NCBI GenBank assembly: GCA_944323985.1
Contig: CALUUP010000016.1
Span: forward strand, 1-33,370
Source of the DNA: Candidatus Gastranaerophilales bacterium
Lineage (GTDB): Bacteria > Cyanobacteriota > Vampirovibrionia > Gastranaerophilales > Gastranaerophilaceae
Direction of reading: 5' to 3'
DNA length: 33,370 nucleotides
Shown here: positions 27,480 to 30,697 of the stretch, in pieces
Position numbering within the stretch: position 1 is the stretch's first letter
Layout of the letters: the number at the start of each line of letters is the position of its first letter
Translations under genes and position numbers: made by a program
The notes under the pieces: model-generated
Databases searched by the model: none
Seen by the model: the letters and a program-made list of their open reading frames with translations, nothing else
What the model was told of the DNA's origin: nothing

Positions 27480-27555
27480 GCGGAAGTAGCTCAGTTGGTA
27501 GAGTATCTGCCTTCCAAGCAGACTGTCGCGAGTTCGAGTCTCGTCTTCCGCTCCA
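27480..27555 (+). tRNA. tRNA-Gly (anticodon UCC), with encoded CCA
   Basis: Full cloverleaf. Acceptor GCGGAAG (27480-27486) pairs with CTTCCGC (27545-27551). The D stem is GCTC/GAGT, and the anticodon stem is TCTGC/GCAGA with loop CTTCCAA and anticodon TCC at 27513-27515. The T stem is GCGAG/CTCGT with loop TTCGAGT. The discriminator is T27552 followed by CCA (27553-27555). It reads GGA (and by wobble other GGN) codons. A terminator follows at 27581. Confidence 0.95.
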
Positions 27556-27580
27556 TTTAAACACTAGAGAAATATAGATA

Positions 27581-27606
27581 GAATCCCTTTGGGGGTTCTT
27601 TTTTTT
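27581..27606 (+). terminator. Terminator of tRNA-Gly
   Basis: GAATCCC (27581-27587) pairs with GGGGTTC (27592-27598), with loop TTTG and an eight-T tract to 27606. It is repeated in copy 2 (27773-27798) and, with one G fewer, copy 3. Confidence 0.85.
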
Positions 27607-27687
27607 ATATTAATTTTAAAAGCGGAAGACTCGACTACGTCTCGTTCCTCCATCTGCTTAAACAAAATTTGTTAATTAGATGAAATA

Positions 27688-27720
27688 GTCACGAAAAACG
27701 TGACATTTAGTCACGTTTTT
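27688..27720 (+). other. Two mutually exclusive hairpins inside the repeat unit
   Basis: GTCACG (27688-27693) can pair with CGTGAC (27699-27704). That same CGTGAC can instead pair with GTCACG (27710-27715). The second form extends to an 11-bp stem AAAAACGTGAC/GTCACGTTTTT and has a T-tract, so it looks like a terminator with an anti-terminator alternative. The pattern repeats at 27880-27912. No gene follows to be controlled by it, so attenuation is speculation. Confidence 0.6.
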
Positions 27721-27742
27721 CTGTTCGCAGACGGAGTCCTTG

Positions 27743-27934
27743 CTCCATTTAAACACTAGAGAAATATAGATAGAATCCCTTTGGGGGTTCTTTTTTTTAT
27801 ATTAATTTTAAAAGCGGAAGACTCGACTACGTCTCGTTCCTCCATCTGCTTAAACAAAATTTGTTAATTAGATGAAATAGTCACGAAAAACGTGACATTT
27901 AGTCACGTTTTTCTGTTCGCAGACGGAGTCCTTG
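27743..27934 (+). repeat. 192-bp tandem repeat, copy 2 (identical to copy 1)
   Basis: By eye every base matches copy 1, including its terminator (27773-27798) and the GTCACG hairpins (27880-27912). Complete identity in non-coding DNA means recent duplication, active conversion or an assembly artefact. Confidence 0.9.
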
Positions 27935-28010
27935 CTCCATTTAAACACTAGAGAAATATAGATAGAATCCCTTTGGGGTTCTTTTTTTTAGTTTTATTTT
28001 AAGATGTAGA
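27935..28010 (+). repeat. 192-bp repeat, partial and decayed copy 3
   Basis: Matches the first 55 bases of the unit, including the hairpin, but the G-run is four rather than five. It then diverges: TTTTAAGATGTAGAAGATGTC still resembles the unit's TTTTAAAAGCGGAAGACTCGAC. The hairpin and GTCACG part is absent. Confidence 0.75.
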
Positions 28011-28246: not shown

Positions 28247-29527
28247 TTATTTTTTAAAACGATTAAAGAATTGTGCTATTTTTTCTCTAATAGATAATCC
28301 TGTTGTTACATTTTCATCATTGCTATTACCTTTTACTCCTTTGCCCCAATTGTTTGATTCAGCATGTTTTTTTACAGCTTCTTTTAGGTCTTTTATAGTA
28401 ATAGGAGAACCTTCTTTTCTTGTACCTGATTCAGAAATTACTCGAGCATGTTCAAAGATGTATTGTAAATCTCTAAAAGATGCATGGTTTGATTTTTTAG
28501 CAATATCTCTACAAATACTATCTAATTTTGAATTGTTAATGTCGGTCAATTCTTTATCCACAACGTCTTGAGGTAAACTCTTATAATGAGCAACTACAGC
28601 ATTTTTTAACTGGTCTTTAGACGGTAGTGGTATAAATACTTTTTGAGGGAATCTGTTTAATATAGCTTCATCTAGAACTTTATTTAATGCCGCATCTTTT
28701 TCAGCTTTGTTAGTAGCTGCAATTACTTGAATATTATCACAAGCAGTCAGTTTTGTTAATGTAGTTTTGAAAGCGTTTTGGAATTTTTCACCCATTTTTT
28801 TGTTATTACCGTCTTCTTTTCTGGCAATAGAGTCAAATTCATCCATAAATACGATATATTTCTTTTTAGGATTTGCTTTTGCTTGTTCTACCATTTGTTC
28901 TACAAATCCCATAATATTATTTTCTGTTTCACCGACGTATTTGTCTGTTAGTTTTAAAACATTCATTTCATATAACTCAGAACCTGGAAATTTTTCTTGC
29001 ATGTATTTTGTAAGAGCATATACATAAGCATTTTTACCGCCGCCAGGTTCGCCATATAGCATAATTCCAGAGCCTCCGTTTGAACCTTTTTTCTTTAAAG
29101 CTTCTGCTCTTTCAATTCTTGTTTTCATATCTTCTACTACTTTTTTCATTTCAGGTCCTAGAGTCAGTTCTTCGAAAGTTTTTTCTTTGCTTACATCTAC
29201 TGGTTTTAATGTATCAATTAATTTTTTGCTTTCTTCTTTTACACCAGTTAAAGCTTTTTTAGTCATTTTTGCTGAAAAAATTGTAGCAATAGCAGAACCA
29301 ATTATTCCAACTGCGATTGCTGCTTGAGCAATTACACCGGCTTTGTTCCATTTTTCTTTAGCATTTTCTTTTTTTAGAGCTTTTTTATTAGCCATTTCTT
29401 GCATTAAAAATACATCTTCAATGTTATTATCAACTATCGCTGGATTATATTGATTGTTGTAATCAATAGTTGGATAAGTTATTGTATCTGCTTTAAATCT
29501 AATTGGTGTATTAATAGATTGGACCAT
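28247..29527 (-). CDS. Membrane-anchored AAA+ ATPase (paralogue 1)
   Basis: 426 aa. The N-terminal TPIRFKAD carries the FK motif (about residues 8-15). One membrane segment lies near 66-86 (GVIAQAAIAVGIIGSAIATIF) and the AAA domain runs from about 120 to 330: Walker A GEPGGGKNA (about 160), Walker B YIVFMDEFDS (about 225), sensor 1 VIAATNK and LNRFPQKVF with the arginine finger. The C-terminal helical lid ends in a basic tail. The residue after the Walker A Lys is Asn, where Thr or Ser normally contacts Mg2+. No protease domain is present, so it is FtsH-like only in topology. A GGAG site precedes ATG 29527. It is 12 bp downstream of its paralogue. Function is unknown; membrane protein remodelling is a plausible guess. 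Confidence 0.85.
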   Translation of the reverse strand: MVQSINTPIRFKADTITYPTIDYNNQYNPAIVDNNIEDVFLMQEMANKKALKKENAKEKWNKAGVIAQAAIAVGIIGSAIATIFSAKMTKKALTGVKEESKKLIDTLKPVDVSKEKTFEELTLGPEMKKVVEDMKTRIERAEALKKKGSNGGSGIMLYGEPGGGKNAYVYALTKYMQEKFPGSELYEMNVLKLTDKYVGETENNIMGFVEQMVEQAKANPKKKYIVFMDEFDSIARKEDGNNKKMGEKFQNAFKTTLTKLTACDNIQVIAATNKAEKDAALNKVLDEAILNRFPQKVFIPLPSKDQLKNAVVAHYKSLPQDVVDKELTDINNSKLDSICRDIAKKSNHASFRDLQYIFEHARVISESGTRKEGSPITIKDLKEAVKKHAESNNWGKGVKGNSNDENVTTGLSIREKIAQFFNRFKK

Positions 29528-29539
29528 TTTTATCTCCTA

Positions 29540-30697
29540 CTATTTTAATGAGTCTAAGAATTTTTGTAATTCACTATCAGTTATATTTAAGTTATTTTTA
29601 TTGTTTACTATGGATTTAATAAGATCATCAATTGTCATGATTGCATCTGTTGAATATTCTTTATTAGATGCAGCTGGCCTTAAGATACCATTAATAAGTT
29701 TTCTAAATGATGTTTCATGTTTTCTTTCAGCCAAAAATTCTGCAATTTTATCTAATTTTTCATTATTAATATCTTTTAAAGCATTTTCTACATCTGTACG
29801 TTTTGGAGATTTATAATAATTTGTTATTGCAAGTTTTATTTGATCTTTTGTTGGTAAATCAACTAAGACTTTTTCGGCAAATCTATCAAGCATTGCGCTA
29901 TCAAGAACTTTTCCTTCTAACCTTGCGAGTTCAGGGTCTATTTTTAAGTTTGTTGCACCCATTACAATAATATTTTCTTTATTTGTTAGATCATTAAAAC
30001 CTTTTTTGAAGGCGTTTAAAATGTCTTGAGAAAGTTTTGCATTGCTTCCGTTATCTTGCATCATTACAGAATCTATTTCGTCAATAAATACAAAATATTT
30101 TTTATCAGGATGTTTATTTGCTTCTTTAATAACGGCTTCCATTGTTCCTAATACGTTTTGTTCGGATTCTCCGTGCCATTTAGAGTTCATTTTAGAAATA
30201 TCCATTTCTACAAATTTTGCATTTGGGAATTTTTTTGTTATTGCATAAGCAAAAGTATTTTTACCTGTGCCAGGAGGACCATAAAATAAAATTGAAGAAC
30301 CTTCTGGACCACCCATTTTTACAATTTTGTCGTGATGTTCTACAAAGTTTGTTATACGTTTTGCGGCTTCTTGTTGACTTTTAGGCATTGCCATCTCATC
30401 CAGGCTTAATTCTTTGGCTAAATCTTTAAATTCAAGTTTAAATCTTTTAAACATGCCCATTTGTTTTGCCATAAAACCAACAGAAAGTAATAATGCTCCT
30501 AGTACTCCTAATTGAATACCTGTATTCAAGCGTTGTTGATTTCTAGCTTTTTTTCTGGCTTGTTCTTGTTGTTTTATAAAGCTATCTACCTCATTTTCCG
30601 GTTGATTTGTTTTTGTTGCCTTGAATGAAGTTGTATTTTTTATCGGTGTATATACCGGTATTTGTGGGGTATTAGTAATACTATTAGTTTGAGTCAT
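29540..30697 (-). CDS. Membrane-anchored AAA+ ATPase (paralogue 2)
   Basis: 385 aa. NTTSFKATKT (about residues 20-29) bears the FK motif, and a membrane segment at about 60-80 (IQLGVLGALLLSVGFMAKQM) precedes the AAA domain. Walker A is GPPGTGKNT (about 137-145), Walker B is FVFIDEIDS (about 204), sensor 1 is VMGATNL and the arginine finger is in LDRFAEKV. As in its neighbour, Asn replaces the Thr/Ser after the Walker A Lys. The two proteins align along the full AAA core and arose by duplication, perhaps forming a hetero-hexamer. ATG 30697 has an AGGTG site. It is the first gene of the two-gene operon, divergent from the MGLACSQ gene over 157 bp. Confidence 0.85.
   Translation of the reverse strand: MTQTNSITNTPQIPVYTPIKNTTSFKATKTNQPENEVDSFIKQQEQARKKARNQQRLNTGIQLGVLGALLLSVGFMAKQMGMFKRFKLEFKDLAKELSLDEMAMPKSQQEAAKRITNFVEHHDKIVKMGGPEGSSILFYGPPGTGKNTFAYAITKKFPNAKFVEMDISKMNSKWHGESEQNVLGTMEAVIKEANKHPDKKYFVFIDEIDSVMMQDNGSNAKLSQDILNAFKKGFNDLTNKENIIVMGATNLKIDPELARLEGKVLDSAMLDRFAEKVLVDLPTKDQIKLAITNYYKSPKRTDVENALKDINNEKLDKIAEFLAERKHETSFRKLINGILRPAASNKEYSTDAIMTIDDLIKSIVNNKNNLNITDSELQKFLDSLK

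What the first reader, a model, noticed from the sequence alone, without database searches (positions are those of the whole stretch)
27551..28010. Identical 192-bp tandem units grown out of the tRNA-Gly 3' end
Two units are identical over 192 bp and a third is partly decayed, all beginning with the tRNA 3' CTCCA and its terminator. Each also carries a segment like the reverse complement of the tRNA 3' half and one like the sense 3' end, so the unit looks built from tRNA pieces. This could be a tRNA-linked miniature element, an amplified attachment site or a small non-coding RNA array. Identity implies recent spread.
Basis: partly seen in the sequence, partly recalled or inferred. Interest (0 to 1): 0.7.

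Follow-up and report, generated by a model that had tools for sequence, protein, structure and literature searches.

The report
tRNA-targeting structured DNA cassettes in tandem
The two identical 192-bp repeats behind a glycine tRNA gene are gene-less copies of a widespread but apparently undescribed family of tiny DNA elements in gut Gastranaerophilales, each built of a conserved folded core that joins base-exactly to a copy of whichever tRNA (or 5S rRNA) gene it sits in, so they look like cassettes that insert into RNA genes and rebuild them.

Summary
Observation confirmed: tRNA-Gly(TCC) 27480-27555 is followed by two identical 192-bp units (27550-27741, 27742-27933) and a decayed third start (to ~28002). 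The unit is not simply tRNA debris. Half of it is a ~95-bp core (two nested hairpins with strong compensatory covariation) found in 60 of 65 genomes of the genus and, among 382 class genomes, only in one family (Gastranaerophilales gut MAGs). In 76 of 88 distinct sites with a tRNA within 1.5 kb, that tRNA's sequence resumes at the first base after the core (control 3.4%), in 26 isoacceptors and both orientations; one locus uses 5S rRNA. Upstream of the core lies an antisense copy of the same tRNA stretch, a hairpin, then a sense copy, so one strand folds into a duplex mimic of the target with the core flipped out at the junction. Some arrays carry genes, including toxin-antitoxin pairs. Relatives show empty sites and other unit numbers. 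Best reading: minimal cassettes of a site-specific element using folded single-stranded DNA. The enzyme is unidentified: not an integron integrase; a Y1/RAYT transposase is a correlated candidate but has its own REPs. The miniature-element/attachment-site idea holds; the ncRNA-array idea is unsupported.

The parts
27480..27555 (+). tRNA-Gly(TCC), the host gene of the array; insertion junction inside it at 27549|27550
27545..27549 (+). CTTCC, the 5-nt tRNA stretch that precedes the junction and is replaced by the core inside the unit ('gap'; 5-6 nt at other tRNAs)
27550..27741 (+). unit 1 (192 bp): tRNA 3' end GCTCCA + terminator + antisense tRNA copy + hairpin + sense piece + core
27580..27607 (+). 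terminator-like hairpin and T-run repeated in every unit
27621..27636 (+). antisense copy of the tRNA stretch around the junction (X'), unit 1
   Evidence: I3; family-wide test
27637..27647 (+). sense tRNA piece (A) adjoining the core; with X' it forms hairpin h1
27648..27741 (+). conserved structured core, unit 1: CTCC-A-TCTGC ... GCAGA-C-GGAGTCCTT
   Evidence: CM R1 101.5 bits; covariation
27693..27721 (+). apical hairpin h2 of the core, 12-bp stem, loop ATTTA
27742..27933 (+). unit 2, identical to unit 1
27813..27828 (+). antisense tRNA copy, unit 2
   Evidence: I4
27840..27933 (+). conserved structured core, unit 2
27934..28002 (+). third copy of tRNA 3' end + terminator, decaying; distal end of the array

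Best explanation
The 192-bp units are two tandem, gene-less copies of a family of minimal mobile cassettes that insert at tRNA (and 5S rRNA) genes. Each cassette begins with a copy of the host RNA gene from the junction to its end (B, with its terminator), may carry genes, and ends with a folded site: an antisense copy of the target across the junction (X'), a hairpin, a sense copy of the left side (A), and the ~95-bp core, after which the next B follows at once. Inferred mechanism: the site acts as folded single-stranded DNA. X' pairs with A and B so that the strand rebuilds the target duplex with the core flipped out at the junction, and a single-strand-specific recombinase or transposase cuts at core|B and joins the cassette to the matching RNA gene, restoring that gene with the cassette's own B. 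Repeated insertion or unequal recombination gives n cores and n+1 gene ends. Shown: anatomy, exact junctions, covariation, presence/absence and copy-number variation between genomes, gene-bearing cassettes. Inferred: mobility, DNA (not RNA) as acting form, role of X' as guide. Unknown: the enzyme.
For: Core family and structure: 8 then 13 of 21 pairs with changes on both sides, 37 and 169 cells, 0 of 500 shuffles. 60 of 65 genus genomes and 111 of 382 class genomes have a match, all in family f1. Own tRNA resumes at offset 0 in 76 of 88 sites against 3.4% with other tRNAs, 1 of 88 at offset -1; 26 isoacceptors, 48 sense and 28 antisense. Antisense target copy upstream of the core exceeds control in 59 of 68, p=5e-11. 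5S rRNA target: L190. DNA fold of an intact site gives the three-way junction. Empty orthologous tRNA-Gly site in G052, other insert types in G046 and G032, 1/2/>=3 units in G042/G000/G055. Gene cassettes with HigB/Gp49-type toxin plus HTH antitoxin between sites, L067 and L069. Four arrays in the window's own genome: Gly, Met, Leu, Arg.
Against: No dedicated recombinase found in all carriers: G381 has sites but only two PF00589 proteins, both Xer-like by size and score; no protein over the integron-integrase cut-off in 382 genomes. No replication-strand bias of site orientation by local GC skew (n=106). Most arrays lack genes (gene-bearing intervals in about 4-5 distinct loci). Transposition itself was not observed; 12 of 88 sites do not continue into the near tRNA. 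All genomes are draft MAGs.
Confidence: 0.6

Rival explanations
1. Y1/HUH route: the units are non-autonomous IS200/IS605- or REP-like elements. X' is a long guide 5' of hairpin h1 that pairs with the 5-6 nt before the insertion point; CTCC/CTCT is the guide 5' of h2 that pairs with GGAG/AGAG just before the right cleavage site; a RAYT-type transposase acts in trans. This is a special case of the best explanation.
For: Two hairpins each preceded by a pairing guide and a constant mismatch in the h2 stem match the IS608/REP rules described in PMC8266576; lengthened pairing gives 12/17-nt targeting in engineered IS608, PMC5934647. PF01797 present in 31/43 strong R1 genomes against 65/233 others of the family, p=1e-7, and 19/24 against 2/10 within the genus, p=0.002 (hand tally). 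RAYT genes lie next to or inside sites in L282, L288, L272, L297.
Against: The RAYTs carry their own inverted GTAG-type REPs; 12 strong R1 genomes, among them G253 with 10 sites, have no PF01797 hit; only 1 of 20 and 4 of 20 RAYT loci have an R1 match nearby, most of them weak; phylogeny not controlled beyond genus; no GC-skew strand bias.
Confidence: 0.3
2. Tyrosine-recombinase route: the folded site is an attachment site like an integron attC or CTX-phage attP, recombined with the tRNA gene by a host Xer protein or an unidentified integrase; B is the shared att sequence. Also a special case of the best explanation.
For: tRNA 3' end carried by each cassette and restored on insertion, distal copy decaying, TA genes in cassettes, 5-6 nt between A and B like a Y-recombinase overlap; folded ssDNA sites are used by integrons and CTX phage (established knowledge; PMC4792948 abstract). 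Xer-type proteins are in all carriers examined.
Against: B sequences of 26 tRNAs share no common arm sequence; no integron integrase over cut-off; other PF00589 proteins are not shared by all carriers.
Confidence: 0.3
3. Structured non-coding RNA array: units are transcribed from the tRNA promoter and processed, like rtT RNA at E. coli tyrT.
For: Units follow the tRNA with its terminator and fold well as RNA (z -4.6); a repeat with the tRNA 3' end is the layout of tyrT/rtT (own knowledge).
Against: Sites also lie antisense to the tRNA and at 5S rRNA; each unit starts with a terminator; very few G-U pairs; Rfam gives only sub-threshold matches.
Confidence: 0.08
4. Ordinary tandem duplication of an integrase scar or assembly artefact, without mobility.
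For: Draft genome; arrays sit at contig ends; identity of the two units.
Against: Conserved covarying core in a whole bacterial family, exact junctions at 26 tRNA types, orthologous empty site.
Confidence: 0.04

Closest known systems
Integron gene cassettes / attC arrays (incl. CALINs)
   Same: Tandem cassettes, one structured covarying site per cassette, folded single-strand logic, toxin-antitoxin genes in some cassettes, gene-less cassettes
   Different: Anchored at tRNA/5S genes rather than attI; carries sense and antisense copies of the target; no integron integrase over cut-off in 382 genomes; no GTTRRRY/RYYYAAC boxes seen at the junction
IS200/IS605 elements, REPs/REPINs and RAYT (TnpA_REP)
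   Same: Two hairpins with a short pairing guide 5' of each, mismatch in the stem, cleavage-like junction just 3' of the right hairpin, guide complementary to the target
   Different: No GTAG tag; complementarity to the target is much longer; restricted mostly to RNA genes; local RAYTs have their own GTAG REPs
tRNA-integrating genomic islands, ICEs and phages (attL/attR)
   Same: Element carries the 3' (or 5') part of the tRNA and restores the gene; truncated distal copy
   Different: Unit is 100-350 bp, usually without genes or integrase; the same core serves at least 26 tRNA isoacceptors and 5S rRNA
CTX-phage attP / dif-module (pdif) systems
   Same: Inverted halves fold one strand into a mimic of the double-stranded target
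   Different: Target is an RNA gene, not dif; no phage gene; enzyme unknown
E. coli tyrT repeats (rtT RNA)
   Same: Tandem ~180-bp repeats each starting with the tRNA 3' end
   Different: No Rfam match; conserved core, antisense sites, 5S site; not an RNA by present evidence (comparison from own knowledge)

Membership tests
Integron / attC cassette array | Integron integrase (IntI) encoded | tested here: not met
   TIGR02249: 0 of 382 class genomes over cut-off
Integron / attC cassette array | Structured, covarying recombination site at each cassette end | tested here: met
Integron / attC cassette array | attC R boxes (RYYYAAC / GTTRRRY) at the crossover | tested here: not met
   junction sequences are GGAGTCCTT|, CGGCAGAGT|, CAGACACAGT|; read by eye only
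Integron / attC cassette array | Genes between sites | tested here: inconclusive
   Yes in L067, L068, L069, L070; most arrays gene-less
REP / REPIN (RAYT-associated) | GTAG (or CGTC) tag 5' of the palindrome | tested here: not met
   alignment A1
REP / REPIN (RAYT-associated) | Cognate RAYT in the genome | tested here: inconclusive
   PF01797 in 31/43 strong carriers; flanked by its own REPs
IS200/IS605 non-autonomous element | Hairpin with 5' guide pairing to cleavage site at each end | tested here: inconclusive
   Right end CTCC/GGAG pairs covary or are constant; left guide = X'; cleavage not assayed
tRNA-integrating element | Exact tRNA 3'/5' fragment at element end, gene restored | tested here: met
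   76/88 at offset 0
tRNA-integrating element | Integrase gene in the element | tested here: not met
   no ORF in the window units; no TyrR between paired sites in fetched loci
Structured RNA (rtT-like) | Match to an Rfam family | tested here: not met
Structured RNA (rtT-like) | Stable transcript from the units | not testable with these tools
   no expression data

The most novel reading that the evidence does not exclude
A new class of DNA-guided mobile cassettes: a conserved folded core that carries its own sense and antisense copy of the target, so that single-strand base pairing rather than protein sequence specificity directs insertion into essentially any tRNA or 5S rRNA gene, with the cassette rebuilding the gene it enters. 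It would be a natural counterpart of the engineered long-guide IS608.
Probability: 0.35. Interest if true: 0.9.

Novelty: new variant of a known kind. Interest (0 to 1): 0.72.

Why it matters
One short core that can sit, to the base, in 26 different tRNA genes and in 5S rRNA raises the question how a single system reads so many targets. If the antisense copy is a guide, this is programmable DNA-guided insertion found in nature. It also shows integron-like cassette growth without an integron in an uncultured gut lineage, and explains tRNA fragments, contig breaks and possible mis-called tRNA copies in its genomes.

Tried and rejected
Simple decayed tRNA duplicates: rejected, the core is not tRNA. 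Phage or plasmid element: no match in 50,697 phages, 72,556 plasmids or IMG/VR by pattern. Integron: no IntI over cut-off. IS110/bridge RNA: PF02371 in only 2 of 21 genomes. Dedicated tyrosine integrase: only the Xer-type proteins shared by all carriers. RAYT as obvious partner: correlated and sometimes adjacent, but with its own GTAG REPs. Replication-strand bias by GC skew: none seen. A 9-mer test against all tRNAs was too permissive (48% background) and was replaced by the same-locus test. A phrase with an apostrophe failed in the paper search; the literature searches found no description of this element, but only open-access papers are held.

Full report
OBSERVATION. The window holds tRNA-Gly(TCC) at 27480-27555. 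From 27550 a 192-bp unit is repeated twice with no difference (27550-27741 and 27742-27933), and a third start runs to about 28002 and then decays.

THE CORE. A DNA search of 144 relatives found the unit at 91-93% in two genomes (G055, G042, same tRNA locus) and its last 53 nt in dozens more, beside other tRNA genes. Twenty-five such cores of 92-96 bp aligned almost without gaps: CTCC-A-TTGGC, about 35 variable bases of nearly constant length, a 12-bp hairpin with loop ATTTA, then GCCAA-C-GGAGTCCTT. The two helices covary: 8 of 21 pairs with both sides changed in 25 sequences, 13 of 21 and 169 cells in 85 distinct sequences, none of 500 shuffles reaching that (that alignment was fitted to the model). 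Only about 13 cells are G-U type changes, which I read as a hint for DNA rather than RNA folding. A covariance model finds the core in 60 of 65 genomes of the genus and, among 382 genomes of the class, in 111, all of one family. A named-genome pattern scan returned mostly Candidatus Gastranaerophilales gut MAGs. A shorter subtype, CCTCTC-hairpin-TCGGCAGAGT, and a subtype ending CAGACACAGT belong to the same model.

THE JUNCTION. I took 129 distinct sites with a recognisable right end. Of 88 with a tRNA within 1.5 kb, 76 continue into that tRNA's sequence at the first base after the core; with tRNAs of other types the rate is 3.4%, and one base earlier it is 1 of 88. Twenty-six isoacceptors are involved, 48 sites in the sense and 28 in the antisense direction. 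The entry point differs: 6 nt from the end in tRNA-Gly(TCC), 14 in Tyr, His, Ser, Lys(CTT), the anticodon loop in Lys(TTT). One locus uses 5S rRNA (L190: 5S at 268-383, sites from 423). Between the sense tRNA piece before the core (A) and the piece after it (B), 5-6 nt of the tRNA are missing; here CTTCC, 27545-27549.

UPSTREAM OF THE CORE. In 59 of 68 sites the stretch before the core matches the antisense of its own target across the junction better than other targets (p=5e-11). The order is antisense copy (X'), hairpin loop, sense A, core, B. Folded as DNA, an intact site (L073) forms a three-way junction: X' pairs with B, a hairpin h1, and the core. The strand thus rebuilds the target duplex with the core flipped out where the insertion lies.

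VARIATION AND CARGO. The orthologous tRNA-Gly in G052 is empty (tRNA and terminator only); G046 and G032 have an insert with a different core behind the same tRNA; G042, G000 and G055 hold one, two and at least three units. Neighbouring units within a genome are 99.5-100% identical (G055 units 1-2, window units), between genomes 91-93%: recent tandem growth or concerted change. In 27 of 115 loci units are tandem, 96-348 bp apart. Some intervals carry genes: in L067 behind tRNA-Glu(CTC), two cassettes of about 1.5 kb, one with an HI1420-type antitoxin and a small partner; in L069 behind tRNA-Asp, Gp49-type toxin and HTH antitoxin. The window's genome has three more arrays, at Met, Arg and Leu tRNAs, two of them at contig starts. 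So the window units are best seen as gene-less cassettes.

HOW IT MAY WORK. Shown: anatomy, exact junctions, covariation, presence/absence. Inferred: a folded single strand is the active form, X' aligns cassette and target, and an enzyme cuts at core|B; the cassette's own B restores the RNA gene. The enzyme is unknown. Integron integrase is excluded at the curated cut-off in 382 genomes. Only Xer-type tyrosine recombinases are common to the carriers tested. Y1 transposases of the RAYT kind are more frequent in strong carriers (31/43 against 65/233 in the family; 19/24 against 2/10 in the genus; counted by hand from printed tables and not corrected for phylogeny) and lie beside or inside sites in L282, L288, L272 and L297, and the anatomy resembles the IS200/IS605 guide rules (PMC8266576; PMC5934647). 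But these RAYTs have their own inverted GTAG palindromes, and several carriers lack them. Local GC skew shows no strand preference. I therefore leave Y1 and tyrosine-recombinase routes about equal.

COMPARISON. It works like an integron cassette array or an IS200/IS605-type element in parts, but fails a defining test of each (no IntI; no GTAG). It meets the junction test of tRNA-integrating elements, without an integrase and with one core for many tRNAs. No description was found in the open-access papers searched; subscription papers are not covered.

Noticed in passing
L097 (G032), L098 (G046), L007, L010, L013, L025, L067, L069, L110, L205: A second, unrelated core family (GAGCNGAGNGCGAAG-hairpin-...CGTTTAAYGCGA...CAAGACA|) with the same layout: 9 of 13 continue directly into a tRNA sequence.
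   Followed up: partly
L272 and L297: A REP-RAYT-REP block sits inside the apical hairpin of a core, splitting its stem-loop.
   Followed up: no
L262 (own genome C2:113735-114088), L270, L278, L282: RAYT-type Y1 transposase flanked by inverted GTAG palindromes; in L282 and relatives a copy of the palindrome lies inside the coding sequence.
   Followed up: no
L257 and L259 (own genome C25 and C23): Upstream of tRNA-Met and tRNA-Arg there is also a copy of the tRNA 5' part (GCAAGGTAGCTC / GCGCTTGTAGCTCAG) joined to foreign sequence, so arrays may grow on both sides of a tRNA.
   Followed up: no
L138, L155: Core hits in MAGs labelled Acinetobacter and Oligoflexia; L138 looks the same as a Gastranaerophilales locus (L024), so mis-binning or mislabelling is likely.
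   Followed up: partly
L143, L182, L134, L188, L184, L151, L142: Short-core sites without a tRNA nearby that continue into repeated non-tRNA sequences; their targets were not identified.
   Followed up: no
window 28247-29527 and 29540-30697: Two adjacent minus-strand AAA+ ATPase-like proteins of similar layout directly behind the array (read from the translation only).
   Followed up: no
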